From an uncultured Lachnospiraceae bacterium (GTDB lineage: Bacteria > Bacillota_A > Clostridia > Lachnospirales > Lachnospiraceae): a DNA stretch of 64,000 nucleotides. Of this stretch, positions 6,113 to 24,447 are shown one piece after another. The notes under the pieces were generated by a model. The model was not told the DNA's origin and made no database searches. It saw only the letters and a list, made by a program, of their open reading frames with translations. Positions within the stretch are counted from its first letter, which is position 1, and every line of letters starts with the position of its first letter. The translations under genes and the position numbers were made by a program. The stretch covers positions 1 to 64,000 of the forward strand of contig CANOBT010000013.1 of assembly GCA_947564305.1 (NCBI GenBank). Direction: 5' to 3'.

Positions 6113-6997
6113 ATGAAAATTTTAAATTTTGGCTCTTTAAATTTAGATTATACCTATCAGGTATCCCATATCGTAACCCCGGGAGAAACGATTACTTCTT
6201 CCAATCTGACAATCCATCCCGGCGGAAAGGGACTAAACCAGTCCATTGCCCTTGCGCGTGCAGGCACGGCAGTCTCACATGCCGGCCAGATTGGAGAGGA
6301 CGGCACAATGCTGAAAGAGATATGTGCACAAAATGGAGTAGACACAAGATTTATTGAAACAGTTCCAATCCGTTCAGGGAATGCCATCATACAGGTAGAT
6401 GAAAGCGGCCAGAACAGCATCATTCTTTTTCCGGGAGCAAACCGTGCAATCGAAGCGCCCATGATAGACAACGTATTGGAGGCATTTGAAACAGGTGATT
6501 TTCTTTTGGTCCAGAATGAAATCAGCAGCCTTCCCTACATCATTGAAAAAGCATGGAAACAGGGCCTCAAGATCATCATGAATCCCTCACCTATGGATGA
6601 AAGGCTTCAAGAATGTGATCTTTCAAAAGTTTCTATGTTTATATTAAACGAAGTAGAGGGTGCACAGTTGACCGGAAAAGAAGAGAGTTCCGATATACTG
6701 GATGAGATGCGGCATTTATTCCCTGATGCTGAAATTATATTAACACTCGGCTCACAGGGTTCCATATATTGTGGTAAGGATATACTGATACGTCAGGATA
6801 TCTTCCCCACAAAAGTCCGTGATACAACCGGTGCCGGGGATACCTTTACAGGCTTTTTTATTGCAGAATATCTGAATAGCCATGACCCGAAACTGGCGCT
6901 TGAAACAGCGAGCCTTGCTGCTTCCATTGCAGTCTCTCGCGCGGGAGCCTCGGATTCCGTACCTACGATGAAAGAAGTGAAAAACTGGCGGAAGTGA
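6113..6997 (+). CDS. PfkB-family carbohydrate kinase (ribokinase-like)
   Basis: A 294-residue kinase with both PfkB signatures: GGKGLNQSIALARAG near residue 37 for substrate binding, and DTTGAGDTFTGFF near 240 with the catalytic Asp and anion hole. The N-terminal NFGSLNLDYTYQV strand is ribokinase-like. It would phosphorylate a sugar or nucleoside using ATP. It is the last gene of the plus-strand cluster and is followed by a strong terminator. A ribokinase would fit salvage of a ribose-containing molecule through the ECF importer, but fructokinase or nucleoside kinase activity cannot be excluded. Confidence 0.88.
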   Translation: MKILNFGSLNLDYTYQVSHIVTPGETITSSNLTIHPGGKGLNQSIALARAGTAVSHAGQIGEDGTMLKEICAQNGVDTRFIETVPIRSGNAIIQVDESGQNSIILFPGANRAIEAPMIDNVLEAFETGDFLLVQNEISSLPYIIEKAWKQGLKIIMNPSPMDERLQECDLSKVSMFILNEVEGAQLTGKEESSDILDEMRHLFPDAEIILTLGSQGSIYCGKDILIRQDIFPTKVRDTTGAGDTFTGFFIAEYLNSHDPKLALETASLAASIAVSRAGASDSVPTMKEVKNWRK

Positions 6998-7002
6998 ATA
7001 TC

Positions 7003-7039
7003 ATGCCGGTGAGCCCCATGCTCACCGGCATATCTTTTT
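7003..7039 (+). terminator. Rho-independent terminator after the kinase gene
   Basis: An 11-bp perfect stem, ATGCCGGTGAG (7003-7013) and CTCACCGGCAT (7021-7031), is followed by CTTTTT. It separates the plus-strand cluster from the convergent TRAP operon. Confidence 0.9.
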
Positions 7040-8042
7040 AGAAATGTATATCCTTTAAATATTTCTCCACGATTTCCTCCGATACATTCTCTTTGATTTC
7101 TTCATAAACCGGCTGAGAATGTTCCACTAACTGCCTGTATAACTCCTCCGACAGCGTGATGACCTGTGTGCCGCTTTCCTCAATGGTCTCTACACGCTGT
7201 GCGATCCGTTCATCCGATGCTTTTCTGGACTCTTCTTTCGCAATCTCACCGGCTTCTAAAAGAATCTCCTGCTCGTCTTGTGACAAGCCTTGAAAAAATT
7301 CTTCGCTGACAATCAGCGACAACAAGTGGGGCAGATGGTTCGTCTCCACCACATAATCCTGCTGCTCATATAGACGGTTTGAAACGATGACCTCATAAGG
7401 GTTTTCCTGAGCGTCAATGGTATTTTGCTGCAGCCCGATATAAACCTCACTGAAACTCATCGGCGTCGGATTCGCCTCCAGAGTCTTCCAAAAATCCATG
7501 TGATAGCTGTTTTCCATAGTGCGGATCTTCTGCCCTTTGAAGTCCGCGATGGACTCCACATTTTTGTTCGTGGACATCACGCGAAAGCCCTGGTCGGAAT
7601 ATCCCAGCAGTTCATATCCTGCGTCCCGGTATTCCTGCCTCATTAGCTCCAAAAAACCGGCGTCATCAACCGCTTTCCTTACGTCTTCTAGCTTGTCATA
7701 AGCACAGGGAGCGTCAAATACAGCCGTGTCCGGGATAAAGTTCACCTGAGGAGCCGTGTTCTGTACAACAAAGGGGATATCTCCGTCATAACAGCTTTCT
7801 AGGAGCTCCCTGTCGCCGCCAAGTACGCTGTTTGGGTATACCTGAATCTTCATCTTACCATCGCTGAGCCGCAATACTTCTTCTGCAAATTTCTCTGCAT
7901 AAATCTGAGTTACCGTGTCCTCCGGACTTGCTGTAGCCAAAGGCCATGCGTACCGCTGCTCTTCGTCTCCGTCTGTCCTCGCACATCCTGCCAGAAGGAG
8001 CAGTGACAGGCATAATATACAAGCTTTACTTATTTTCCTCAT
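7038..8042 (-). CDS. dctP: TRAP transporter solute-binding lipoprotein
   Basis: A DctP-family protein. I start at 8042, since it begins an ideal lipoprotein signal (MRKISKAC, hydrophobic core, LLAGC lipobox) preceded by GAGAGGA; an upstream ATG at 8105 would add 21 residues with no function. The mature part has the family's solute-carboxylate Arg in a conserved context (DQGFRVMST, then GQKIRTM) and the QNTIDAQENPYEVI motif. It binds an organic acid outside the membrane and hands it to the DctQM membrane unit encoded upstream. Given the aro neighbours, quinate or shikimate is the likely ligand (inference). It is the last gene of the operon. Confidence 0.88.
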   Translation of the reverse strand: MRKISKACILCLSLLLLAGCARTDGDEEQRYAWPLATASPEDTVTQIYAEKFAEEVLRLSDGKMKIQVYPNSVLGGDRELLESCYDGDIPFVVQNTAPQVNFIPDTAVFDAPCAYDKLEDVRKAVDDAGFLELMRQEYRDAGYELLGYSDQGFRVMSTNKNVESIADFKGQKIRTMENSYHMDFWKTLEANPTPMSFSEVYIGLQQNTIDAQENPYEVIVSNRLYEQQDYVVETNHLPHLLSLIVSEEFFQGLSQDEQEILLEAGEIAKEESRKASDERIAQRVETIEESGTQVITLSEELYRQLVEHSQPVYEEIKENVSEEIVEKYLKDIHF

Positions 8043-8128
8043 ATTTTCTGTTTTCCTCTCAGTTAGGAATCGTCTGCCATAAACTGTTTTCCCGGCATCC
8101 GCCAATCATCCTTCTTTTCCTCTCACCT

Positions 8129-9421
8129 CTACCGAATCAATGCCAGGCTGATTCCCGGCACAAACGTAATCATCAGCAGCGCAATCAGAAAATACACGAT
8201 CATTGGCATTGCCTTTTTTGCAATCTCCATCACCGGAATCTCCACTAGCGAGCTTGCCACAAACAGGTTGACCCCAATAGGCGGTGTCACGAATCCGATG
8301 GCCAGATTCACGACCATGATGATTCCAAACTGAACCGGGTCCATGCCAATCTGCGTCACAATAGGGAGCAGAATCGGCGTCAAAATCAAGATAGCCGGTG
8401 TGGTATCCATAACCATGCCCACCAGAAGCAAAAAGCCGTTAATTACAAGCAACAGTACCACCGGATTCGTGAAATGTGCGAGAATCCATCCACTGATTGT
8501 CTGTGGCACCTGCATCAATGTCAATACCCTGGAAAATGCCACCGATGTCGCCAGAATAAACAGGATTGGGGCAAACGTCCGAATCGCCTCCACCATCATT
8601 TTCCAGATATCCTTTGCCTGTATGCTTTTATAAACAAACATGCTCACAAGCAGCGCATAGAAAACAGAGATAACCGCTGCCTCTGTCGGTGAAGCCACGC
8701 CTGAATAAATACATCCGAGAATAATCACCGGACTCATCAGCGCAAAAAAGCTTTCCTGCAAAACTTTCAGGATTCCTTTCTCATGGAGCGCCCCTACCAC
8801 TTCCTGGATTTTTTCTTTATCTTCCCCGTGCTTTCTGCAATAGTACACTGCATAGATCATAAGCAATGCCCCAATCAACAGCCCTGGGATGATACCTGCC
8901 AGAAATAAGTCGCTTACCGAGGCGCCGGATGCCATTCCGTACATGATAAAGGGAATACTGGGCGGTATGATAACACCCAATCCGCCTGCAACAGCCACCA
9001 CTGCGGTCGCAAACTTTTTGTCATAGCCAAGCTCGAGGAGGATTGGGATGGTCATGCTTCCCACCGCCGCTACCGTGGCTGGAGCCGAACCGGAGATTGC
9101 CCCATAGAACAGGCAGGTCACAATGACCGCACAGGGCATCCCGGCTGTCCATTTCCCCATAAAAAATGCAAATACATCAAACAGTTTTTTGGAAATTCCA
9201 CCCTTTGCCATAATGATTCCGGATAAAACGAACATGGGAACCGCCAAGAGCGGAAAACTGTCCAGCCCGCCCAACATGGAGCGGATAACGTAGGTTGCAC
9301 TTGCCGTAAAAGATGCATCAAAAGCACCTGGCAGTACCGAGACAATGCCAAGGGAGATGGACACTGGAATCGCAATTACCAGACAGACTACAAAAATCAA
9401 AAATACCACTGCTACCGGCAT
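8129..9421 (-). CDS. dctM: TRAP transporter large permease
   Basis: A 430-residue DctM-type protein with about 12 hydrophobic segments. Family hallmarks are visible: GGLDSFPLLAVPMFVLSGIIM, SGSAPATVAAVGSMTIP, GLGVIIPPSIPFIMYG and the C-terminal GFVTPPIGVNLFVASS. It uses a sodium gradient to import the solute from DctP. Its start overlaps dctQ by 10 nt (AGGGAGGGAAG upstream), so the two membrane subunits are coupled. Confidence 0.95.
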   Translation of the reverse strand: MPVAVVFLIFVVCLVIAIPVSISLGIVSVLPGAFDASFTASATYVIRSMLGGLDSFPLLAVPMFVLSGIIMAKGGISKKLFDVFAFFMGKWTAGMPCAVIVTCLFYGAISGSAPATVAAVGSMTIPILLELGYDKKFATAVVAVAGGLGVIIPPSIPFIMYGMASGASVSDLFLAGIIPGLLIGALLMIYAVYYCRKHGEDKEKIQEVVGALHEKGILKVLQESFFALMSPVIILGCIYSGVASPTEAAVISVFYALLVSMFVYKSIQAKDIWKMMVEAIRTFAPILFILATSVAFSRVLTLMQVPQTISGWILAHFTNPVVLLLVINGFLLLVGMVMDTTPAILILTPILLPIVTQIGMDPVQFGIIMVVNLAIGFVTPPIGVNLFVASSLVEIPVMEIAKKAMPMIVYFLIALLMITFVPGISLALIR

Positions 9422-10014
9422 GATGTCTTCCCTCCCTTATCCGCTTTTTCATCCTTTATATTTTTTTCAAACCCGGACGCTGCATCCGGGTCTTTCTCTT
9501 TTTCTGTATATTTCTGCTCTTTTCCAAGCATCACATTCCATTCAATCCACCATCTCTGTGCCACCCGGAATGCCACCAGCGCAAAACTAAACAACGGCGC
9601 GGCCTGTACATAGTACATCGGCAGATTCAATGCAGGGCTTGTCTGCCCGCTGTGGATGGCTGACAGAAAGAAGCGCCATGCAAAAGGCATCAGATACAAG
9701 AACAGAATCAGCTCAAAGGTGTGGTTCACCATTTTAAAAGCAGCCTTTCCCCTTCTTGGAAAGATAGCAACAAACTGCTCAATCTTGATGGAGATACATT
9801 TCTTCGTACAATAGCTGACGCTCAAAAAGCCTGCCCAGATAAAAATATACCGTGTCAGCTCCTCGGACCATGACAGCGACATTCCCAGCACATACCTGGA
9901 AAACACCTGCACACCCATGATCAGCGTCATTGCCCCCAAAAAAACGACCATCAAAAATTCTTCCAAATTTTCATTGAGCCAGCATAGGGCCCGCTTTACA
10001 GAGCCGCCTTTCAT
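9412..10014 (-). CDS. dctQ: TRAP transporter small permease
   Basis: A 200-residue DctQ protein with four predicted membrane helices and the family pattern FSRYVLGMSLSWSEELTRYIFIWAGFL. The C-terminal tail is long, charged and lysine/aspartate-rich. Start and aroD stop overlap as ATGA. It forms the membrane complex with DctM. Confidence 0.93.
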   Translation of the reverse strand: MKGGSVKRALCWLNENLEEFLMVVFLGAMTLIMGVQVFSRYVLGMSLSWSEELTRYIFIWAGFLSVSYCTKKCISIKIEQFVAIFPRRGKAAFKMVNHTFELILFLYLMPFAWRFFLSAIHSGQTSPALNLPMYYVQAAPLFSFALVAFRVAQRWWIEWNVMLGKEQKYTEKEKDPDAASGFEKNIKDEKADKGGKTSCR

Positions 10015-10772
10015 AAGCTTTTGTGAAGCAGGTTCAATACGGTCTCCAGATCGTTGACACCCATCTGTCCTGGTGCGGATGCCTTCTTGGCAGCGCCGAA
10101 TGTCAATGCGGAACCAAACACTTCTCCGCAGAGACGGCTGATGACGCCGGTTCCTGCCATCGACATTGTAATGATTGGGCGGTCAGCATGCTCTCTCGTC
10201 ATTTCTTCTGTAGCTGCAAGCAGAGTAATCACATCTTTTTTGCTTTGCGGCATCACGGCAATTTTAGGAATGTCCGCGCCTAACTCCTGCATTTTGCAAA
10301 GCCGGCTTACAATATCAGCCTGCTCCGGCGTTTTATCAAAATCATGGTTAGATGCCACGACCTTGACTCCTGCTTTGTGCACTGACTCAATAATTTCTTT
10401 TACCACTTCATCTCCGGTAAATGCTTCCACATCTACCAAGTCAACATTTCCGGTTTCCGCTACGGCCTTATTGAGCTCAGCGTAAGCCTGTGGTTCAATG
10501 GCTTTTTCACCACCTTCTTTGGAAGTACGGAAGGTAAACAAAAGCGGGGTATCCTTCAATGCCGCACGCAGTTCTACAAGAACTTCCTTTACCTTCTCTA
10601 TCTCAAATACATGCTCAAACCAGTCTACACGCCACTCTACCACATCTACCGGAATGGATTCAAATGTCTTTGCTTCATTGATAATGTCTTCCTTTGTGAC
10701 ACCTACGATTGGTACACAGATTTTCGGGATACCCTCCCCAATTTTTACATTTCTCACTACTACCGGATTCAT
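10011..10772 (-). CDS. aroD: 3-dehydroquinate dehydratase, type I
   Basis: A 253-residue type I enzyme that interconverts 3-dehydroquinate and 3-dehydroshikimate through a Schiff base. Active-site elements in order: EWRVDWFE (Glu and Arg), SNHDFDKTP (catalytic His), PKIAVMP (Schiff-base Lys), SRLCGE (Arg) and SAPGQM (Ser, Gln). I choose the ATG at 10772, with AAGGAGG 8 nt upstream, over the 10805 start. Its place between a shikimate-type carrier and a TRAP importer, away from other aro biosynthesis genes, points to catabolic rather than biosynthetic use. Confidence 0.95.
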   Translation of the reverse strand: MNPVVVRNVKIGEGIPKICVPIVGVTKEDIINEAKTFESIPVDVVEWRVDWFEHVFEIEKVKEVLVELRAALKDTPLLFTFRTSKEGGEKAIEPQAYAELNKAVAETGNVDLVDVEAFTGDEVVKEIIESVHKAGVKVVASNHDFDKTPEQADIVSRLCKMQELGADIPKIAVMPQSKKDVITLLAATEEMTREHADRPIITMSMAGTGVISRLCGEVFGSALTFGAAKKASAPGQMGVNDLETVLNLLHKSL

Positions 10773-10800
10773 CTGCATGTCCTCCTTTTTTGATTTTGCA

Positions 10801-10828
10801 GCCACTTGCAGCGCAAGTGACTGCTTAC
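10801..10828 (-). repeat. Leader hairpin element, copy A (upstream of aroD)
   Basis: On the minus strand CAGTCACTTGC-GCT-GCAAGTGGCTG forms an 11-bp stem (one G-U) ending about 24 nt before the aroD RBS. The same element lies upstream of the dapF-like gene at 33743-33770 with 22 of 28 identical bases; the six differences are all transitions and at least one stem pair changes compensatorily (G-C to A-T). The 134-nt gap 10773-10906 otherwise shows nothing clear. Confidence 0.6.
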
Positions 10829-10906
10829 TTTTACACTTCTCCTCTTTACTATAATAACGTGTCTGTCAAGAGACCTGTGTTGATATGTTTTCTTCTCTTT
10901 CCCTTT

Positions 10907-12094
10907 TTACTTTGATGCTTCCGCATTTTTCAGCAAAGTTCCATACCTCATGTTTACAAACAGTGCTAATAAAACACCTATTACGGTAATCACAATGTTC
11001 ATTATAATGACATTCACCGCTGTCATTTTGGATGCTGCACTCAAGATTGTATAATTACACAGACTTGAGGCAATCATGACCAGGCTGGTAATCGTTCCTT
11101 TAATCTTCGGGAACAGATCATTTACCGTTGCCGTTGCCATCTGCAGCACACCGCCTGCTGCAGAATATCCGATAACAAATGCGCCCACATAGCAGATCAT
11201 CGGTGTCTTTAACAGGTAAACAAACACCAGCATCACTACAGAAATTGCCGGATATATTACCAGAAAACGAACCTGTTTGAATTTCGTAATCAACGCACTG
11301 GTTACGAACAATGCGGCCAAGGTTCCTGCGGAATAGTATGTCTGCATTACGGACACCGTCTCGGAAGGGATTCCTGCGATTTCTTTTCCGAATGTCTGCG
11401 CACAGTTCAGCCAAAGCTGGAATGTAGCAGTACTTGTAAAGCCAATCAGTATCAGCGCCACACTTTCCAGAGAAAAGTGTGCATTTTTCAGATTATCAAG
11501 GAATGACTCTGACTTTCCGCTTTGGGAAGCCGCCGGAAACGGTGCAAAGATTGCAAGGACACCGAGAACCGCAATCACAATACCCGCCACAATAGCCAAT
11601 GTCAGATAAGACATTTTCGTTCCTGCCACAATGCCAAGGAAGAATGGCATCAAAAGCTGGGATACAGAAATAAATAATTTGATTCCCATAGTCGCAATAC
11701 CTGTATACTTATACATAATTTCTGCAACCGCCGGATAAGTCGCGGTATCCAGAAATGAGTTGGCGATTCCGCCCAGCACTGCTGCCACATAGGCTACCTG
11801 TACGTTGGGTGAAAATGCAATTCCCACAAAGAAGATTACATAGGATGCCACTCCGATGAGTACGGAAATCCTTCGTCCCAGTTTATCCGACAGCGGACCT
11901 GCGAAGGGCAGGGAAATCAGTCTTCCAAGCCCCAAAGCCGCTGCAATGGCTGTGACGCGCATCACATCATCCACACCCCACTGCACAATCAAGGTTTCCT
12001 TCACGACTTGCTGGCTTAAAATGGAACATCCAATTCCGTGAATAAAATAATTCATATAAAGTATAAGCGCACTTGGCAAATATTTTTTTTCCAT
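10907..12094 (-). CDS. MFS carrier, YdiM/YdiN-like (probable quinate/shikimate transporter)
   Basis: A 395-residue major-facilitator protein with 12 hydrophobic segments. GPLSDKLGRRIS in the loop after helix 2 is the MFS motif, and the C-terminal GYSAAGGVLQMATATVNDLFPKIKGTITS region resembles E. coli YdiN, which likewise lies beside ydiB and aroD. AAGGAGA lies 6 nt before the ATG. It lies 13 nt after the dehydrogenase gene. With the TRAP system it gives this operon two unrelated importers. Confidence 0.85.
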   Translation of the reverse strand: MEKKYLPSALILYMNYFIHGIGCSILSQQVVKETLIVQWGVDDVMRVTAIAAALGLGRLISLPFAGPLSDKLGRRISVLIGVASYVIFFVGIAFSPNVQVAYVAAVLGGIANSFLDTATYPAVAEIMYKYTGIATMGIKLFISVSQLLMPFFLGIVAGTKMSYLTLAIVAGIVIAVLGVLAIFAPFPAASQSGKSESFLDNLKNAHFSLESVALILIGFTSTATFQLWLNCAQTFGKEIAGIPSETVSVMQTYYSAGTLAALFVTSALITKFKQVRFLVIYPAISVVMLVFVYLLKTPMICYVGAFVIGYSAAGGVLQMATATVNDLFPKIKGTITSLVMIASSLCNYTILSAASKMTAVNVIIMNIVITVIGVLLALFVNMRYGTLLKNAEASK

Positions 12095-12107
12095 TTTTCT
12101 TCTCCTT

Positions 12108-12983
12108 TTATTCGTAACGAATTCCCAGTACTTCTTTCATATGCTCGATTGGCATTTCTTTTCCTGTCCAAAGCTTGAATGCAGCCGCACCCTGGAAGAG
12201 CATCATACCGAATCCATTCATGTTCTTGCAGCCGACTTCCTTAGCCATACGCAGAAGTTCTGTCTCTGCCGGAGCATATACGGTATCTGTCACAATCAGG
12301 TCTGGTCTTAAGAAAGATTTATCCGGAATCACTGCCTTGCCCTCTAATGGCTTCATACCTACACCTGTTGCATTTGCAAACAAATAGGAATCGTCAATCT
12401 CACGTCTCAATGCATCCAAATCTGCCAGGTCGTAAAGAGTCGCTTTACAGTTTGTCTTTGTATTAATCTTCTCTACAGTCTGTACTGCTGTATCCCAGAA
12501 TTTATCCTTCACATTGAAGATAGACATTTCCTTCACACCGTCCAACGCTGCCTGAATCTGGATTGCGGTTGCAGCTCCGCCGGCTCCTGCAATCGTCATC
12601 TTCTTTCCGATTACATCAATATCATAGTCTTTCAGAGACTGCATATATCCGATTCCGTCTGTGATATGTCCAATCAGCTTTCCGTTATCATTCACGATTG
12701 TATTCACGGCTCCGCTAAGTTCCGCTGCCGGTGACAGTTCATCCAAATATTTATGTACCACTGTCTTATTTGGCATGGATACATTAGACCCTACCATCTT
12801 CAATGCGCGAAGACCCTTAACTGCGTCCTCCAATGTGCTGTTGTCTACTTCAAATGCAAGGTACGCGTAATCCAGTCCAAGGTAAGCAAAGGCTTCATTA
12901 TGCATTGCCGGGGAGCTGGAATGTCTGATTGGATATGCCATTAAACCGATTAATTCTGTATGTCCTGTAATTCTCTCTGCCAT
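12108..12983 (-). CDS. ydiB: Quinate/shikimate dehydrogenase (YdiB-like)
   Basis: A 291-residue AroE-superfamily enzyme. Substrate site: PIRHSSSPAMHN (shikimate-binding serines), SNVSMPNK (catalytic Lys), GAVNTIV and HITDGIGY (catalytic Asp). Cofactor site: GAGGAATA, then FNVKDKFWD where biosynthetic AroE has the NADP-selective NRT-R/K motif. That, and the C-terminal TGVGMKPLEGKAV...DTVYAP...GFGMMLFQGAAAFKLWTGKEMP, closely parallels YdiB, which uses NAD(P) and accepts quinate. First gene of the minus-strand operon; expected reactions are quinate to dehydroquinate or shikimate to dehydroshikimate. Confidence 0.92.
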   Translation of the reverse strand: MAERITGHTELIGLMAYPIRHSSSPAMHNEAFAYLGLDYAYLAFEVDNSTLEDAVKGLRALKMVGSNVSMPNKTVVHKYLDELSPAAELSGAVNTIVNDNGKLIGHITDGIGYMQSLKDYDIDVIGKKMTIAGAGGAATAIQIQAALDGVKEMSIFNVKDKFWDTAVQTVEKINTKTNCKATLYDLADLDALRREIDDSYLFANATGVGMKPLEGKAVIPDKSFLRPDLIVTDTVYAPAETELLRMAKEVGCKNMNGFGMMLFQGAAAFKLWTGKEMPIEHMKEVLGIRYE

Positions 12984-13153
12984 GATATTATTCTCCTTTT
13001 TCTTCTCTTTTTAATTTGTTATCCTGGTATAAATACCTTTGATTTTTCTGTATTACTTTTGCCCTGATTGTGTCTATTTCTTTGCTGCCCTCCTTTTTTG
13101 TTAAGTTTGTAACATATCTGTTAATTTTTAGACAACCTCTTTTTCTTGACTCT

Positions 13154-13183
13154 AGTATACATGAAAACATATCATACTTCCAA
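13154..13183 (-). promoter_or_regulatory. Promoter of the quinate/shikimate operon
   Basis: On the minus strand TTGGAA (13178-13183), an 18-nt spacer and TATACT (13154-13159). Its -10 aligns without gaps with the -10 of the flavoenzyme promoter (13154 matches 16484) when the shared upstream elements are superposed. Confidence 0.65.
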
Positions 13184-13230
13184 TATATATTATTTCATTT
13201 ATCTATAGCTTTTTTGCATAGATTATGATA
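13181..13230 (-). promoter_or_regulatory. Shared upstream activator element, copy 1 (probable LysR site)
   Basis: This 50-bp block matches 16511-16560 at 35 of 50 positions with no gap, including ATATATAT, TCATT, ATAGCTT and a terminal CAT/GAT-A pattern. It sits just upstream of the operon's -35 and contains the imperfect dyad TATAGC-N6-GCATA with T-N11-A geometry typical of LysR regulators. It also lies between the divergent lysR gene and the operon. Confidence 0.65.
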
Positions 13231-13269
13231 GTATAAAAACAGGAAATTTGTACGGATTTCAGATAAGAT

Positions 13270-13288
13270 TTGCAGATTCGATCTGCAA
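13270..13288. promoter_or_regulatory. Perfect inverted repeat upstream of the lysR gene
   Basis: TTGCAGAT-TCG-ATCTGCAA, 8-bp arms and a 3-bp loop, 30 nt before the lysR start codon. It could be an autoregulatory operator or a leader hairpin. Confidence 0.45.
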
Positions 13289-13318
13289 TCGGTTACAAAA
13301 GATGTGGGGGGATTTGAG

Positions 13319-14200
13319 ATGACGTTAAATCAATTAACTTACTTTCGTAAAATCGCACGCTTAGAGCATTTCAGCCGCGCGGCAGAAGAATTAAATATTT
13401 CTCAGCCCAGCCTCAGCCGCTCCATGGATACACTGGAACGGGAACTAGGACTTCCGCTTTTTGAAAAACAGGGACGTAATGTGGTATTAACAAAATATGG
13501 ACGTATCTTTCTGACTCATGCAGAGCGCATCCTGGAAGAAGTGGCCGCTGCGGAACGAAAAATGCAGTATCTGACCAAAGGCGGCGGTCATGTGGATATC
13601 GCCTACGTCTCACCCTTGGCGAATTACTACATCCCGCATACGGTCCGTAGTTTTTTGAATCTGGAAGAAAACAAAAATGTCACTTTCAGTTTCAGCCAGG
13701 CACGGACCAGTGACCTGATTGCCGGGCTGAAAAATGAAACCTATGACATCGTTTTCGGAGCTTATGTGGAGGATCAGCCTTCCATCCATTTCACTCCCAT
13801 TTTAAAGCAGGAAATGATTATCATTACCTCCCTGGACCATCCCCTGGCCAAAGAGAAGCATGTGCCATTCGAGGTCCTCGGACAATATCCGCTCATCGGG
13901 TATGACCACAATTCCGGTCTTGGCTTATATACAAAGAAATTGTACCGCCAACGTCATATCACGCCCACTCTTGTCATCGACTGTCCCGATGAATATTCCA
14001 TCGCCGCCTTGGTGGCAGAGGATTTCGGGATTGCCCTGGTAGCAGATGTGGATACCATCCGTGATGCAAGGATCAGCCGTCTGGAGATTACAGATGAAAA
14101 AATCATCCATACAGTATATATGGCCTATATGAAAAATAAATATCTCATTCCTGCTGCAAACCGGTTTTTGAAGTTTGTACGCGAACATGCCAGTTCATGA
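13319..14200 (+). CDS. LysR-family regulator of the quinate/shikimate genes
   Basis: 293 residues. The N-terminal winged helix (LNQLTYFRKIARLEHFSRAAEELNIS, QPSLSRSMDTLERELG, LFEKQGRNVVLT) is followed by a LysR effector domain beginning VDIAYVSPLANYYIP. I start at ATG 13319, 7 nt after GGGGGA, which gives the normal N terminus; the 13304 start adds five residues. It is divergent from the ydiB operon and convergent with the flavoenzyme gene, both of which carry the same upstream element, so it likely controls both in response to a pathway intermediate (inference). Confidence 0.92.
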   Translation: MTLNQLTYFRKIARLEHFSRAAEELNISQPSLSRSMDTLERELGLPLFEKQGRNVVLTKYGRIFLTHAERILEEVAAAERKMQYLTKGGGHVDIAYVSPLANYYIPHTVRSFLNLEENKNVTFSFSQARTSDLIAGLKNETYDIVFGAYVEDQPSIHFTPILKQEMIIITSLDHPLAKEKHVPFEVLGQYPLIGYDHNSGLGLYTKKLYRQRHITPTLVIDCPDEYSIAALVAEDFGIALVADVDTIRDARISRLEITDEKIIHTVYMAYMKNKYLIPAANRFLKFVREHASS

Positions 14201-14203
14201 ACA

Positions 14204-14247
14204 GCCGCAGGACAGTATACTGTTCTAAAAGTATCCTGTCCTGCGGC
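14204..14247. terminator. Hairpin between convergent lysR and flavoenzyme genes
   Basis: GCCGCAGGACAG pairs perfectly with CTGTCCTGCGGC, continued by ATAC/GTAT after one mismatch. GC-rich and placed between convergent genes; no good T-run on either side, so termination efficiency is uncertain. Confidence 0.6.
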
Positions 14248-14306
14248 CGCTTGTCATCGCTATTTTAATAACTTTACAATTCTTTGGCTGTCAGTTATCT
14301 CCATTT

Positions 14307-16310
14307 TTATAAGTATTCTCTTTGCTCCAGTACTCCCAGAATATTTCTTCCTTCGGTTGTACCTTCAATAATCCTTCTTGCCCGGACGCTGTCACCGATA
14401 TTCATAATCTCCACAGCTCCGCTGTTTCCAAATGTATCATATAATGCCTGAAGGATTGGAGCGTTCGCCCTCATACCGAGACATACGAACCCATAATCAA
14501 ATTCCAGATCGCTCTCTGTCCCGTCCGGCAGCTTCACTAGGAATGCATCTTCCTTCACTTCCATCAGTGCTGTATTTGTCAACTGTTTTACCCCATGCTT
14601 CTCCATCAGGGTAAAGGTTCCTACCTTAGATACCGGGTCGATTCCATTTCCGATTGCAGGCATCATTTCCACGATGCTCACCTTGGCTCCGCGTGGTGCA
14701 AAGAATTCTACCACATCAAGTCCGACAGCGCCGCCGCCGATGACCACGACTTTTTTCCCGGTCATATCCTGAGGATACTCCATCACATGGTCTATCATGT
14801 TTGTAATGGAAGATACCTTGCCGCCCTCTTTGTCTATATGCTCATGCAGCCCTTTGATTGGCGGGAGCAGCGGATTAGAACCTGTGGCATTCACAATAAT
14901 ATCCGGATTCAAACTGGTAACAAGCTCAATCGTTGCCTCAGTATTTTTGAATACAAACAAATTTTTTAATTTGCTTGCTCTGTGAATCAGATAATTGGGG
15001 AAATCGGACAGTCGCTTTTTATCTGGAATCTTGGAAATAATAGCTGCCAGTCCTCCAAGTTCTGGTTTCTTTTCAATCAAAAATGTAGTACATCCTACCT
15101 CTGCTGCGGTGCAGGCTGCCTCCAAACCGGCAGTACCACCTCCGATGACCACAACATTACAGGGTTTGTTCACTTTCTTTTTCTTGTATCCTTCACCTTC
15201 ATTTACCGAAGGATTGATCGTACAGCGAATGGGACGGTTGACACCAATTCGGTTTCCGGCGCAGCCAATGTTGCAGGAAATACATTTACGGATTTCTTTT
15301 TCATCCCCAAAGCTGACCTTATTCACCCATTCCGGGTCCGCAATCAAGCCGCGCCCCATTCCGATCAGGTCTGCGTCACCACGGCCTAAAATATCCTCGG
15401 CAACCTTCGGGTTTCTGATATTGCCCATAGTCATACATGGCTTTCCGTATTTTTCCTTCACCGCCTTTGCCATGTAGGAACGCCAGCCGTCTTCCAGATA
15501 GTTTGCATCAATCTGATACTGGATGGAGCCGTTCAAACCACAGGAAACGTCGAATGCATCCACTTCTTTCTCAAAATACTGCAGATACTCCAGGGTATCT
15601 TCCAGAGTGTTGCCGCCTTCCACAAATTCATCCGCACTGATACGGACAAAAATCGGGAACGCCGCACCTACCTGCGCACGTACTTCTTCAATGACCATTT
15701 TGGCAAAACGTGCCCGGTTCTCCGGAGAACCGCCGAACTCATCTGTCCGTTTATTGGTCGTCGGGGACAGGAACTGGCTTAAAAGATAGGAATGGCCTGC
15801 ATGAATCTCTACCGCATCAAAGCCTGCAATCTGCGCACGCTTCGCTGCTTCCCCATATTTCTTTACAATCTGCAGGATTTCCTCTTTTGTAAGCGGTCTT
15901 GGAATCTCCCCGCCTGCCTTGGACGGGATATCGGATGCGGAAACCGGCTGCATATTCGTTCTTGCCGACTGTGCGGAAGCCCCTGCATGGTTAATCTGAA
16001 TGGCAATACATGCTCCATGCTTATGTATCGTCTCACACAGCTTGAAAAGACGCGGAATGTAGCTGTCATGGTCAATCCGAAGCTGCGTTGTTCCATTGGA
16101 ACCTAAAGGAGAATCCACACTTGCATTTTCTACGATCAATAGACCTGTGCCGCCTTTTGCCCTCTGCTCATAGTAGTTGATGTGCAAAAAGCTCATTTCC
16201 CCATTCTGCTCTCCATAGTTCGTGCCCATGGGAGTCATAACGATTCTGTTTTTCAGTGTCATATGTTTGATAGTAAGCGGTTCAAAAATATGTTGATACT
16301 TGCTCTGCAT
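14307..16310 (-). CDS. Old yellow enzyme-type NADH:flavin oxidoreductase/2-enoate reductase
   Basis: 667 residues, the length of the two-domain family that includes 2,4-dienoyl-CoA reductase, 2-enoate reductase and BaiCD/BaiH. Residues about 1-340 form the FMN barrel (LKNRIVMTPMGTNYGE; FDAVEIHAGHSYLLSQFLSP with the substrate-binding His). CISCNIGC plus a following Cys bind a 4Fe-4S cluster near residue 345. From about 385 an FAD/NAD half follows (VVVIGGGTAGLEAA; KVVVIGGGAVGLDVVEF). It moves electrons from NAD(P)H to reduce an activated C=C bond. AGGAGG precedes the ATG. Co-regulation with the shikimate genes suggests an unsaturated cyclohexene acid as substrate (inference). Confidence 0.9.
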   Translation of the reverse strand: MQSKYQHIFEPLTIKHMTLKNRIVMTPMGTNYGEQNGEMSFLHINYYEQRAKGGTGLLIVENASVDSPLGSNGTTQLRIDHDSYIPRLFKLCETIHKHGACIAIQINHAGASAQSARTNMQPVSASDIPSKAGGEIPRPLTKEEILQIVKKYGEAAKRAQIAGFDAVEIHAGHSYLLSQFLSPTTNKRTDEFGGSPENRARFAKMVIEEVRAQVGAAFPIFVRISADEFVEGGNTLEDTLEYLQYFEKEVDAFDVSCGLNGSIQYQIDANYLEDGWRSYMAKAVKEKYGKPCMTMGNIRNPKVAEDILGRGDADLIGMGRGLIADPEWVNKVSFGDEKEIRKCISCNIGCAGNRIGVNRPIRCTINPSVNEGEGYKKKKVNKPCNVVVIGGGTAGLEAACTAAEVGCTTFLIEKKPELGGLAAIISKIPDKKRLSDFPNYLIHRASKLKNLFVFKNTEATIELVTSLNPDIIVNATGSNPLLPPIKGLHEHIDKEGGKVSSITNMIDHVMEYPQDMTGKKVVVIGGGAVGLDVVEFFAPRGAKVSIVEMMPAIGNGIDPVSKVGTFTLMEKHGVKQLTNTALMEVKEDAFLVKLPDGTESDLEFDYGFVCLGMRANAPILQALYDTFGNSGAVEIMNIGDSVRARRIIEGTTEGRNILGVLEQREYL

Positions 16311-16483
16311 AATTCTGCTTCCTCCTGATTGGCATACTCTTCATCATCAATCTATGGTTGATATGTTTTCCAGAGAAAGAGGTCGTCTTCTGTCCATTCT
16401 TACAGCTTCTAGGAATCCTTATAGTTCGGACAGTTTTATTGTCTGTGCTCATACCGGGCATGTATGAGTTTTGTTCTGGCCTT

Positions 16484-16512
16484 ATTATAACGCGGAAATA
16501 CACATAGCACAA
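16484..16512 (-). promoter_or_regulatory. Promoter of the flavoenzyme gene
   Basis: On the minus strand TTGTGC (16507-16512), a 17-nt spacer and perfect TATAAT (16484-16489). Predicted leader about 167 nt. Confidence 0.75.
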
Positions 16513-16560
16513 ATATATATTTTATCATTAATTCATAGCTTTAGCGTATCAATCTTCATA
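16511..16560 (-). promoter_or_regulatory. Shared upstream activator element, copy 2 (probable LysR site)
   Basis: Matches 13181-13230 at 35 of 50 positions without gaps, and lies at the same distance from its -10 hexamer. It contains CATAGC-N4-GCGTAT with T-N11-A character. The following stretch to 16640 holds nothing I recognise. Confidence 0.65.
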
Positions 16561-16646
16561 CACAAGATAGGAAGCCTTCACATGATGTCCGCATGTTCAC
16601 AAAAAAAATCCGCAGTCTATTCCATGTTTCTTTCTACTTTCTGTAC

Positions 16647-16677
16647 AAAAAAAGAGGATTTCCGACTGAAAACCCTC
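16647..16677 (-). terminator. Terminator after cotJC
   Basis: Minus-strand GAGGGTTTTC-AGTC-GGAAATCCTC (10 bp with two G-U pairs) followed by TTTTTTT (16647-16653). Confidence 0.85.
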
Positions 16678-16692
16678 ATTTTTTATTCCATT

Positions 16693-17304
16693 TTAATTTG
16701 TCAAAAACTGTTTATCAAATTCCGGATTGAAGTAGTAATAATTTCTTGAATCCAACGATTCTTTTGTCTTTTCCAAAGCTTCCCCGAATCTCTGAAAATG
16801 CACCACTTCCCTTGCACGAAGAAATTTCAACGGCTCGCGTATTTCTGGATCTGAAATCATACGAAGCAAATTCTCATATACGGTGCGCGCCTTTTGTTCC
16901 GCGGCAAGGTCTTCCGTCAGGTCTGTAACTGCATCCCCCTTGGACTGAAATTCTGTTGCTGTAAACGGAACTCCCGCGGCTGCCTGGGGCCAGAGAGCCG
17001 ACGTATGGTCAATATAGTAGGCATCAAATCCGGCTTCCTTTGCTTCTTCTGTAGTAAGATTTTTAGTCAACTGGTAAACCATAGCACAGATAATCTCCAT
17101 GTGGGCAAGTTCTTCCGTACCAATATCCGTGAGCAGACCACCCACTGTTTTATCCGGCATCGTATACCGCTGAGACAAATAACGCATGGATGCTGACAGT
17201 TCTCCATCCGGACCGCCGTACTGGCTGATGATCAATTGTGCTGTTTTCGGGCAGGTTTTTGTAATTTTTACCGGATATTGCAATCTTTTTTCATAAATCC
17301 ACAT
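16693..17304 (-). CDS. cotJC: Spore coat protein CotJC (manganese catalase-like)
   Basis: A 203-residue member of the CotJC/manganese catalase family. Ligand-bearing segments of the di-metal four-helix bundle are visible: GELSASMRYLSQRY, GTEELAHMEIICAM, LAAEQKARTVYENL and REVVHFQRFGEAL. In spore formers it is deposited in the coat and may protect from peroxide. The ATG follows the stop of the CotJA-CotJB gene directly, with AAGGAGTG inside that gene's end. A terminator lies 16 nt downstream. Confidence 0.93.
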   Translation of the reverse strand: MWIYEKRLQYPVKITKTCPKTAQLIISQYGGPDGELSASMRYLSQRYTMPDKTVGGLLTDIGTEELAHMEIICAMVYQLTKNLTTEEAKEAGFDAYYIDHTSALWPQAAAGVPFTATEFQSKGDAVTDLTEDLAAEQKARTVYENLLRMISDPEIREPLKFLRAREVVHFQRFGEALEKTKESLDSRNYYYFNPEFDKQFLTN

Positions 17305-17823
17305 TTATACACACACTCCTTCCCACGGTGCCGGTCCTTTTTGCCAGCAATAACATCCTGAATTCGGATGCTCCCCATAAATATCCGCCATACAGTCCAT
17401 AGTAAGAGGCTCAAACTGAAGCGCATATTCTTTCAGAAGCTTCTTTCGTTCCATAACTGTTTTCTTCAAAAGCGAAAGTCCCTGCTTGTCCGCGGGATGT
17501 GTGTCCATAAACAAACGTACATCATCCAAGACAAAACTAATCTGTTGGATTTCCAGAAGCTTGGCTTCCCGTTTCCTGGCTTGCTCCGAATTCTCTGTAC
17601 CGGAATCTAACGCGGTTTTTGATTTTTTCATTACTTCGGATGCGATATTTCCTGCCTCTCCAAACTTCTGCTGTCCTCCTGCATTATCTCGCTCTGTTAT
17701 AAAAAACGGTTTGTTGAGCTCTGGAAAGATTGTTCCGTTTTCCAGTGCTTCCTTTTCATCATATATCTGTCCCCATTTCTGTATGGGAACAGACGCAATT
17801 GCCAGATGTTCATTTTCAAGCAT
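17305..17823 (-). CDS. Fused spore coat protein CotJA-CotJB
   Basis: About 172 residues. The N-terminal part (IASVPIQKWGQIYDEKEALENG, then IFPELNKPF) is a CotJA domain, and the C-terminal part (LLEIQQISFVLDDVRLFMDTHP..., ending CYCWQKGPAPWEGVCV) is a CotJB domain. They are joined by a polar linker of about 45 residues. In Bacillus and most Clostridia these are separate genes. I use the ATG at 17823 (AAAGGAG 10 nt upstream) rather than the 17871 start. CotJA and CotJB act with CotJC in the spore coat. Confidence 0.88.
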   Translation of the reverse strand: MLENEHLAIASVPIQKWGQIYDEKEALENGTIFPELNKPFFITERDNAGGQQKFGEAGNIASEVMKKSKTALDSGTENSEQARKREAKLLEIQQISFVLDDVRLFMDTHPADKQGLSLLKKTVMERKKLLKEYALQFEPLTMDCMADIYGEHPNSGCYCWQKGPAPWEGVCV

Positions 17824-23814: not shown

Positions 23815-24447
23815 TTAATTATGGTAATATTCCATCATAAGATTATTTGGTATGTCCTTATTATCGCTTTGTCCTTCCTCTAGGTTCCCTCTCGTTTCTT
23901 TCCACGGCCTTTCATTATGAGTATACTTTCTCAATGTATCCCCATCTTCATCCCCATACGTACTGATTACGTTATCCATGTGCCGTTTCTCGGACTCTGA
24001 GAATTTATGGGTGAGAGGATAGTTTCCTTTTCTCACAATCCTTCTGGATTTATGAGTATCAAAAAGACGTTTGTTTACCGGGCCATTCGCATAGTCTTTG
24101 AAAGTATCATTAATAAAGATAGTCTTATAAATTCCAAGACACCACGCCTGACAATAATAGACCAACTTTTGGAGCATCCAGGTATCAATTGCATTCAGCT
24201 TATCCAGAACATAAGACGCTATATCAATCGATGTCGAATTTGTAAACTCAATACGTTCATAATCCTCCGGCGGTATCTCCCGACCGATTTCTCTGGCAAA
24301 ACTTATCCATTCACCTATTGCTACATCAGCGTTTTTAAGTGACTCTTCAATCGTGGCACCATCTGCCATGCATCCAGGCAAGGATGGAACATTTGTAATA
24401 TATGCGTTGTCATCTTCGCTCCAATAGAACATTTTATTGTATGCCAT
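23815..24447 (-). CDS. Fused antitoxin: HicB-like domain plus Panacea (DUF4065/SocA-like) domain
   Basis: 210 residues. Residues about 1-65 are a HicB antitoxin fold (FYWSEDDNAYITNVPSLPGC, then MADGATIEESLKNADVAIGEWI). Residues about 75-185 are a Panacea domain (IDIASYVLDKLNAIDTWMLQ, KLVYYCQAWCLG, YANGPVNKRLFD, THNERPWKETR). Panacea is known as a promiscuous antitoxin domain that neutralises unrelated toxins; HicB normally blocks the RNase HicA. The gene overlaps the 3' end of a hicA remnant by 14 nt, with AGGAGGGG inside hicA as RBS, the usual hicAB order. The antitoxin is intact while the toxin is frameshifted. Confidence 0.85.
   Translation of the reverse strand: MAYNKMFYWSEDDNAYITNVPSLPGCMADGATIEESLKNADVAIGEWISFAREIGREIPPEDYERIEFTNSTSIDIASYVLDKLNAIDTWMLQKLVYYCQAWCLGIYKTIFINDTFKDYANGPVNKRLFDTHKSRRIVRKGNYPLTHKFSESEKRHMDNVISTYGDEDGDTLRKYTHNERPWKETRGNLEEGQSDNKDIPNNLMMEYYHN

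What the first reader, a model, noticed from the sequence alone, without database searches (positions are those of the whole stretch)
13154..16560. A collinear 50-bp regulatory element links the flavoenzyme to the quinate/shikimate operon
The promoter regions of the ydiB operon (13154-13230) and of the 2-enoate-reductase-like gene (16484-16560) align without gaps: 35 of 50 identical upstream bases and -10 hexamers in the same register (offset 3330 for both). A divergent LysR gene lies between. This supports one LysR regulon and makes the flavoenzyme part of the pathway, although it is on a separate transcript.
Basis: partly seen in the sequence, partly recalled or inferred. Interest (0 to 1): 0.72.

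Follow-up and report, generated by a model that had tools for sequence, protein, structure and literature searches.

The report
Shared switch for quinate-degrading genes
A gut-type clostridial bacterium carries two matching control sites, one before its quinate/shikimate genes and one before a neighbouring flavin enzyme, and the same pairing in many relatives suggests that the enzyme belongs to this pathway, which may serve to dispose of surplus electrons.

Summary
A matrix built only from 39 ydiB promoters of other genomes finds exactly two sites in the window: 13157-13224 (ydiB operon, 35.9 bits) and 16487-16554 (flavoenzyme, 34.9 bits); the third scores -3.6. Both have a LysR-type layout: -10, activation site, T-N11-A dyad near -65. 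In relatives these two places are the best pair in 58 of 80 loci, and in two Clostridium species the flavoenzyme gene follows ydiB on the same strand. The regulator's effector domain is closest to QuiR (5TED, shikimate-bound). Corrections: LysR is convergent with the flavoenzyme gene, and in 30 of 80 loci a second QuiR-like LysR, with another half-site, lies beside the flavoenzyme; the window's flavoenzyme site is of the first type (+25 bits), its ydiB site near neutral (+3). New: a Rex-like (NADH-sensing) operator follows the ydiB -10 (at most 2 of 14 positions off in 62 of 73 leaders), but the window's in-register copy is degenerate. I infer a hydroaromatic electron sink in which the flavoenzyme reduces the C=C of 3-dehydroshikimate. 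Nothing was tested biochemically.

The parts
12108..12983 (-). ydiB-like quinate/shikimate dehydrogenase, first gene of the presumed operon
   Evidence: NCBIfam NF001313 shikimate dehydrogenase above cut-off (520 bits); NF009390 quinate/shikimate dehydrogenase 348.8 against cut-off 349
10907..12094 (-). MFS transporter
   Evidence: PF07690
10011..10772 (-). aroD, type I 3-dehydroquinate dehydratase (start at 10772 assumed; the longest ORF starts at 10805)
   Evidence: TIGR01093, PF01487
9412..10014 (-). TRAP transporter small permease (DctQ)
   Evidence: PF04290
8129..9421 (-). TRAP transporter large permease (DctM)
   Evidence: PF06808, TIGR00786
7038..8105 (-). TRAP solute-binding protein (DctP)
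   Evidence: PF03480
13319..14200 (+). LysR1, QuiR-like LysR-type regulator, divergent from ydiB, convergent with the flavoenzyme gene
   Evidence: PF00126 + PF03466; best PDB match 5TED Lmo0488, E 3e-34 over residues 90-288, E 4e-49 with the family profile
14307..16310 (-). OYE/2,4-dienoyl-CoA-reductase-type flavoenzyme with FMN barrel, CxxCxxxC...C cluster motif and pyridine-nucleotide domain
   Evidence: PF00724, PF07992; BaiCD model 481 bits, below its cut-off of 825; alignments with 6qkg, 1ps9, 3krz, 3kru and 1z41
13157..13224 (-). LysR-type promoter element of the ydiB operon
   Evidence: 35.9 bits with the out-of-clade matrix
13154..13159 (-). -10 hexamer TATACT
   Evidence: sequence
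13201..13224 (.). recognition dyad, T-N11-A at 13206/13218, centre about -65 from the predicted start; near neutral between the two half-site types (+3.1)
   Evidence: start site inferred from the -10
16487..16554 (-). LysR-type promoter element of the flavoenzyme gene
   Evidence: 34.9 bits with the out-of-clade matrix
16484..16489 (-). -10 hexamer TATAAT
   Evidence: sequence
16531..16554 (.). recognition dyad, T-N11-A at 16536/16548, LysR1-type (+25 bits against LysR2-type)
13118..13135 (.). Rex-like operator CTGTTAATTTTTAGACAA near the conserved position, 3 of 14 positions off, so weak
   Evidence: conserved position in relatives
13098..13115 (.). second Rex-like site TTGTTAAGTTTGTAACAT, 2 of 14 off, outside the conserved register
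   Evidence: best such site in the 64-kb window; 0.3 expected at exactly 2 mismatches

Best explanation
The two elements are operator-promoters of one QuiR-like LysR activator (LysR1). Shown by computation: the same 68-bp layout before both genes, in this window and in relatives. Inferred: on binding quinate or shikimate (or a product), LysR1 held at the -65 dyad shifts to the AT-rich site near -35 and activates both the ydiB-MFS-aroD-TRAP operon and the flavoenzyme gene. The operon imports quinate/shikimate and turns it into 3-dehydroshikimate (YdiB, AroD). The flavoenzyme then reduces the ring C=C of 3-dehydroshikimate (or a close enone), and a YdiB-type dehydrogenase reduces the ketone, so that the hydroaromatic acid takes up electrons. 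The Rex-like operator just behind the ydiB -10 in relatives would tie expression to high NADH; in the window this second control looks weakened.
For: Out-of-clade matrix hits exactly two places in the window. The same two places are the best pair in 58 of 80 loci, and the OYE site is in the top two in 64 of 76 loci that hold the OYE gene. Dyad type: +25 bits LysR1-type for the window's OYE site; in two-LysR genomes the types separate fully (ydiB 17 of 17 positive, OYE 21 of 21 negative, non-redundant, leave-one-out). A LysR2-type paralogue elsewhere in the genomes of L001 and L002 has a LysR2-type dyad of its own (-16.5, -17.0). Effector domain closest to 5TED, described as QuiR bound with shikimate (PMC11602165, passages). 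Same-strand ydiB-OYE order in L036 (47 bp between hit bounds) and L035, and OYE-ydiB in L078 and L080. Co-occurrence 9 of 11 against 3 of 139 (8 of 10 without the centre genome). Catalytic motif IHAGHSYL aligned with YqjM IHAAHGYL, where dienoyl-CoA reductase has VMGSEGYL; four cluster cysteines kept. Rex-like operator with at most 2 of 14 off in 62 of 73 ydiB leaders, 33-36 bp from the -10 in 66 of 73; Rex-type gene in 9 of 9 genomes searched.
Against: No binding or expression data. Three of 12 sampled OYE genomes (G182, G179, G120) have no YdiB hit near the OYE gene; a fourth (G071) is undecided, on separate contigs. The window's ydiB dyad is only weakly LysR1-type (+3.1, below the leave-one-out range of 9.2-31.6), and L002's OYE dyad likewise (+3.1). 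Among single-LysR loci 6 of 22 non-redundant OYE dyads are LysR2-type. Neither the dyad columns alone nor the activation-site columns alone put both window sites in the top six. The Rex-like box is degenerate in the window and absent from its OYE leader; at 1 mismatch the box is no commoner in four genomes than its reversed control, within one site. The substrate of the flavoenzyme is inferred only.
Confidence: 0.6

Rival explanations
1. The flavoenzyme promoter in this lineage is read by a LysR2-type paralogue acting from elsewhere in the genome, as a divergent LysR2 probably does in the two-LysR relatives, so there are two regulons with look-alike sites.
For: LysR2 lies beside the flavoenzyme gene in 30 of 80 loci, and both LysR1 and the one LysR2 tested match QuiR best; LysR2-type paralogues (45-46%) exist in the genomes of L001 and L002; the left half of the OYE dyad in L001 and L002, CTATAG, is found in LysR2-type sites too.
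Against: The OYE dyads of window, L001 and L002 score LysR1-type (+25, +15, +3), whereas the dyad beside that paralogue is LysR2-type (-16.5, -17.0), and the paralogue sits next to a DUF6198 gene in L116. The window's own genome is not held, so presence or absence there is unknown.
Confidence: 0.15
2. The flavoenzyme acts on another plant-derived enone or enoate that arrives together with quinate (for example the hydroxycinnamate half of chlorogenic acid) and is merely co-induced.
For: The protein matches models of enzymes with varied substrates (BaiCD, bilirubin reductase, mycofactocin OYE), all below their cut-offs; quinate comes in food as chlorogenic acid (recalled; also stated in PMC11602726, passages).
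Against: In two Clostridium loci it is in line with ydiB and near aroD, and it co-occurs with YdiB; none of the eight cluster proteins scanned is an esterase.
Confidence: 0.25
3. The likeness of the two promoters is a recent local duplication or gene conversion without regulatory meaning.
For: The two sites of the window are rather alike (41 of 68), at the top of the range.
Against: Identity stops at the element; both sites are kept in their place in loci of Lachnospiraceae, Clostridium, Mogibacterium and others, with same-genome identity of 27-41 of 68.
Confidence: 0.02
4. The palindrome behind the ydiB -10 is not a Rex operator but the site of another repressor.
For: The genome-wide count at 1 mismatch equals the reversed control in G003 and G010 and exceeds it by one in G004; G001 has none; the window's copies are degenerate.
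Against: It matches the consensus quoted for clostridial Rex (PMC5367854, PMC9600882, passages). Of six places with at most 1 mismatch in three genomes, four have an ORF of 250 residues or more within 350 bp: an L-lactate dehydrogenase, a GAPDH (here the site also overlaps the end of an upstream ORF), an iron-containing alcohol dehydrogenase and the ydiB operon itself.
Confidence: 0.25

Closest known systems
QuiR of Listeria (Lmo0488, PDB 5TED), LysR-type regulator of shikimate-induced genes
   Same: Best PDB match of LysR1 and of the one LysR2 tested; its paper's title says shikimate-induced activation of protocatechuate genes (Prezioso 2018, seen only in the reference list of PMC11602165)
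   Different: Described there for protocatechuate formation (aromatisation); here none of the eight cluster proteins scanned is a dehydroshikimate dehydratase, and an OYE-type flavoenzyme is present. I recall, from no call, that a gene annotated NADH oxidase lies next to quiR
QsuR / ShiR of Corynebacterium glutamicum
   Same: LysR-type regulators that answer to compounds of the quinate/shikimate route (PMC11258901 and PMC9332510, passages)
   Different: QsuR answers to chorismate; no flavoenzyme partner known to me
Rex regulon of clostridia
   Same: Operator consensus TTGTTAANNNNTTAACAA (PMC5367854, PMC9600882, passages)
   Different: A quinate/shikimate operon among its targets is not something I saw in those passages
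OYE / 2,4-dienoyl-CoA reductase / BaiCD type Fe-S flavoenzymes
   Same: Domain order and cluster cysteines
   Different: Below the cut-offs of BaiCD, bilirubin reductase and mycofactocin OYE models; YqjM-like HxxHxY instead of the dienoyl-CoA reductase motif

Membership tests
LysR-type regulated promoter | T-N11-A dyad centred near -65 and activation site near -35, with a LysR gene alongside | tested here: met
   transcription start inferred from the -10. The layout rule itself is recalled
LysR-type regulated promoter | Binding and effector-dependent activation | not testable with these tools
   needs EMSA, footprint, expression
One regulon (LysR1 reads both sites) | Both sites clearly of the LysR1 half-site type | tested here: inconclusive
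   all six scores of window, L001 and L002 are positive (ydiB/OYE: +3.1/+25.0, +18.0/+15.0, +23.1/+3.1), but two are near zero
QuiR-type regulators | Effector domain homologous to QuiR | tested here: met
   5TED is the best PDB match
QuiR-type regulators | Shikimate as ligand | not testable with these tools
   ligand-contact residues were not compared
Rex operator | Match to TTGTTAANNNNTTAACAA at the promoter | tested here: inconclusive
   met in relatives (62 of 73 with at most 2 of 14 off); in the window 2 and 3 off, and the copy near the conserved position is the weaker
BaiCD | Score above the curated cut-off | tested here: not met
   481 bits against 825
Bilirubin reductase, long form | Score above the curated cut-off | tested here: not met
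   369 bits against 750
OYE superfamily (Oxidored_FMN) | FMN barrel with His/His/Tyr active site | tested here: met
   PF00724 284 bits; H170, H173, Y175 aligned with YqjM, invariant in 13 of 13 rows of 82% identity or more

The most novel reading that the evidence does not exclude
Gut and rumen clostridia carry a widespread, dually controlled hydroaromatic electron-sink pathway: a QuiR-like LysR senses quinate/shikimate and Rex senses NADH, and a dedicated OYE-type Fe-S flavoenzyme is the missing dehydroshikimate ene-reductase that saturates the ring. A paralogous LysR with a changed half-site serves the flavoenzyme in one set of genomes, while in the window's branch the flavoenzyme promoter is read by the first LysR.
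Probability: 0.4. Interest if true: 0.75.

Novelty: new variant of a known kind. Interest (0 to 1): 0.55.

Why it matters
As far as I know, quinate from coffee, tea and fruit reaches the colon in quantity, and the reduction of its ring by anaerobes is not assigned to genes (recalled, not searched beyond the ten listings named below). If right, this names the regulator, the importers and the ring-reducing enzyme of that route in common gut clostridia, shows why it would be switched on when NADH is in excess, and makes the chemistry directly testable with one purified flavoenzyme. It also gives a natural case of two paralogous LysR proteins with different half-sites that divide a regulon in some genomes, while one serves it in others.

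Tried and rejected
The window's own genome is not held, so no whole-genome search of it was possible. Rfam gave no match at gathering threshold in 6500-17500, so no known riboswitch there. The structure prediction of the flavoenzyme (13 near relatives) came out at mean pLDDT 53 and pTM 0.43; it was not used and no fold search was run. Recent duplication of the promoter was rejected because identity ends at the element and both sites are kept in relatives. I first took LysR2 to be wholly absent from the window's clade; a LysR2-type paralogue is present elsewhere in the genomes of L001 and L002, so I withdrew 'absent' and tested its own site instead. The link between LysR2-type OYE dyads and a LysR2-like gene is only a tendency: of the 29 loci searched, 6 of 7 with a negative score have a LysR2-like hit of 44% or more in the genome (L051 is the miss), 6 of 21 with a positive score have one too, and L044 had no classifiable site.

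Rows dropped or moved: L028 and L029 were misregistered in the first block extraction, left out of the matrix and re-placed by hand positions. L079, whose second LysR is only 29% identical, was counted as 'single', not 'two-LysR', from then on (in it still counts as two-LysR). Near-identical sites were removed for the matrix (80%) and for the type test (85%); the counts keep near-copies. The 47 sites of alignment A2 were chosen by me (24 ydiB, 23 OYE) and cut as 68-mers, so their lack of gaps is partly by construction. Loci L019, L020, L021 and L026, whose OYE/LysR2 site lies further than 300 bp from the OYE gene, were added by hand for and are missing. Model R1 was built from both window sites, so its window hits are no independent test; in whole genomes only 150 candidates of the first look were scored per genome. 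The 59% line for YdiB was drawn after seeing the list (the next value is 56%), and the centre genome G003, itself found through its LysR, is one of the 150; without it the count is 8 of 10 against 3 of 139, p 1.4e-9. L117-L120 were only searched with tblastn, L121 and L122 were not analysed.

I saw listings only, plus passages of PMC5367854, PMC9600882, PMC11602165, PMC9332510, PMC11258901 and PMC11602726. No listing showed me a paper that ties an OYE-type flavoenzyme or Rex to quinate/shikimate genes; only open-licence PMC papers are searched. Naranjo Pinta 2018 on gut quinic acid and Prezioso 2018 on QuiR are not held: the first I know from recall and from the reference list of PMC11602726, the second from recall and the reference list of PMC11602165. 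The reduction of quinate/shikimate by lactobacilli (Whiting and Coggins, 1970s) is recalled, from no call.


Full report
What is there. On the minus strand the window holds a presumed operon ydiB (12108-12983), MFS transporter, aroD and a three-gene TRAP transporter down to 7038. A LysR gene (13319-14200, +) is divergent from it, and a 667-residue flavoenzyme gene (14307-16310, -) follows, convergent with LysR. The flavoenzyme has the FMN barrel, the pyridine-nucleotide domain and the four cluster cysteines of the 2,4-dienoyl-CoA reductase type. It scores below the cut-offs of the BaiCD, bilirubin reductase and mycofactocin models, and carries the HxxHxY motif of YqjM rather than the dienoyl-CoA reductase motif.

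The observation. To test this without the window itself, I took 80 loci with a LysR relative from named genomes (the 80 best of 384). The ydiB-LysR intergenic regions were aligned and 68-bp blocks extracted. A matrix was built from 39 non-redundant blocks, without the window and its two nearest relatives. It finds exactly two places in the window, 13157-13224 (35.9 bits) and 16487-16554 (34.9 bits); the third-best is at -3.6. The two places stand out only by the whole element: dyad columns alone put the flavoenzyme site first but not the ydiB site in the top six, activation-site columns alone the reverse. Forty-seven chosen sites from both promoters align without gaps, partly by construction. 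The block reads: -10, about 15 variable bases, ATA..TC.AATACAT.TTTT, a short spacer, TTGATAG-N7-CTATCAA. The dyad holds the T-N11-A of LysR-type sites and is centred about 65 bp before the start predicted from the -10. The layout rule is recalled.

Conservation. Scored with the same ydiB-trained matrix, the best two places of a whole locus are the ydiB and the OYE promoter in 58 of 80 loci. The OYE promoter is in the best two in 64 of 76 loci that hold the gene. Of 77 OYE upstream regions of 300 bp (window included), 67 reach a score matched by at most 2 of 200 shuffles. Misses include loci cut by contig ends, loci where the stronger hit points the other way (L034, L050, L070), loci with weak OYE sites (L013, L044), and three Clostridium loci with another gene order (L031, L035, L036). 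Further sites precede TRAP genes in L013, L024, L048 and L066. With a profile of all sites, in the genomes of L001 and L002 only one more hit stands out, next to another LysR.

The flavoenzyme in the pathway. In Clostridium thailandense (L036) the order on one strand is ydiB, OYE (47 bp between hit bounds), MFS, aroD, behind the LysR-divergent promoter; in C. ljungdahlii (L035) it is aroD, ydiB, OYE (68 and 215 bp). In C. magnum (L031) an OYE gene is the nearest recognised gene behind that promoter (472 bp). In L078 and L080 a YdiB-like gene, the only one seen in those loci, follows the OYE gene on the same strand. In 150 genomes drawn evenly from the family of L003, 12 have the OYE gene (E <= 1e-180). 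Of these 12, by my reading, eight have a YdiB-like gene of at least 48% identity within 3 kb, one (G071) is undecided because of contigs, and three have none near. Of 11 genomes with a YdiB of at least 59%, 9 have OYE; of the other 139, 3 have it (Fisher p 1.4e-10, not corrected for kinship, the 59% line drawn after the fact). Without the centre genome it is 8 of 10 and p 1.4e-9.

Two LysR types. In 30 of 80 loci a second LysR lies between LysR1 and the OYE gene, divergent from OYE; it is 36-41% identical to LysR1 by tblastn in 28 of them, 34% in L040 and 29% in L079. In a tree of 110 LysR sequences the 29 LysR2 rows form one side of a branch (100/100; L079's long branch is unsure), while window, L001 and L002 group among LysR1 (100/100 for the three). 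The recognition helix reads SQPSLSRS in most LysR1 and QPSLSHA in most LysR2. The dyads differ accordingly: LysR1-type TTGATAG..CTATCA at ydiB, LysR2-type .TATAGA..CTATGA at OYE. The log-odds separate 17 of 17 ydiB sites from 21 of 21 OYE sites of two-LysR loci (non-redundant, leave-one-out). In single-LysR loci 16 of 22 non-redundant OYE dyads are LysR1-type and 6 LysR2-type. In the window the OYE dyad is LysR1-type (+25), in L001 +15, in L002 +3; the ydiB dyads are +3, +18 and +23. The genomes of L001 and L002 do hold a LysR2-type paralogue elsewhere (45-46%), next to a DUF6198 gene in L116, and its own dyad is LysR2-type (-16.5, -17.0). So the single-regulon reading is the best one for the window, less so for L002, and the two near-zero scores keep it short of proof.

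Ligand. The best match of LysR1 in the PDB is 5TED (E 3e-34; 4e-49 by profile), and so it is for the one LysR2 tested, of L005 (E 1e-51). 5TED is QuiR of Listeria monocytogenes bound with shikimate (PMC11602165, passages). A hydroaromatic ligand is therefore likely, but the contact residues were not compared.

A second operator. Behind the ydiB -10, relatives share a palindrome TTGTTAA-N4-TTAACAA: at most 2 of 14 positions off in 62 of 73 leaders (window included) and at 33-36 bp from the -10 in 66 of 73 (near-copies kept). OYE leaders of two-LysR loci have it with at most 3 off in 21 of 25, 17 of them at 36-38 bp; single-LysR loci in 5 of 40, the window's clade in 0 of 3. This is the consensus quoted for clostridial Rex (PMC5367854 and PMC9600882, passages). 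A gene with the PF06971 domain (that of Rex, recalled) is found over cut-off in 9 of 9 genomes searched. Six places with at most one mismatch in three genomes (none in the fourth, G001) include those before an L-lactate dehydrogenase, a GAPDH, an iron-containing alcohol dehydrogenase and the ydiB operon; two have no ORF of 100 residues within 350 bp. Against it: the reversed control pattern is about as common in these genomes, and the window's own copies are 2 and 3 off.

Mechanism. From the families: YdiB oxidises quinate or shikimate, and AroD links 3-dehydroquinate and 3-dehydroshikimate (established knowledge). 3-Dehydroshikimate is an enone, the substrate class of HxxHxY flavoenzymes (recalled). 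None of the eight cluster proteins scanned is a dehydroshikimate dehydratase, so I infer that the ring is reduced, not aromatised, and that the sum of the steps takes up NADH. That Rex-like control sits on the operon in relatives fits this. Substrate, product and cofactor are not shown.

Verdict. It is a new variant of a known kind: a QuiR-type quinate/shikimate regulon with an OYE-type flavoenzyme and probable Rex control in relatives.

Noticed in passing
window 13098-13135; relatives' ydiB leaders: Rex-like palindromes between the ydiB -10 and start codon, conserved in most leaders examined (62 of 73 with at most 2 of 14 off), degenerate in the window.
   Followed up: yes
L003-L007, L009, L011 and other two-LysR loci (30 of 80): A second QuiR-like LysR divergent from the flavoenzyme gene, with a changed recognition helix and half-site.
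   Followed up: yes
L116:7325-9150 (and, by likeness, L115:4831-6617): A LysR2-type paralogue divergent from a DUF6198 gene, with its own LysR2-type site; function unknown.
   Followed up: partly
G008:C114:53310-54041 (genome of L040): The LysR2-like gene there is matched only from residue 47 on and has an internal TGA, so it looks broken.
   Followed up: no
L033:3-7065, L038:1-7010, L048:13911-20861, L066:13913-20830, L035:428-4696: A parallel set of MFS, YdiB-like (46-51%) and OYE-like (31-33%) genes, with TRAP genes in L033, L038, L048 and L066, beside the first; possibly a second hydroaromatic pathway.
   Followed up: no
L028:14629-15489, L037:13387-14244, L040:16951-17811: A second YdiB-like gene (54-55%) next to the flavoenzyme gene, on the other strand, a candidate for the ketone-reducing step.
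   Followed up: no
window 23815-24447 (-): One ORF joins a HicB/UPF0150-like N-terminus to a SocA/Panacea antitoxin domain.
   Followed up: no
window 16471-16749: A 92-residue ORF on the plus strand overlaps the flavoenzyme promoter; probably chance.
   Followed up: no
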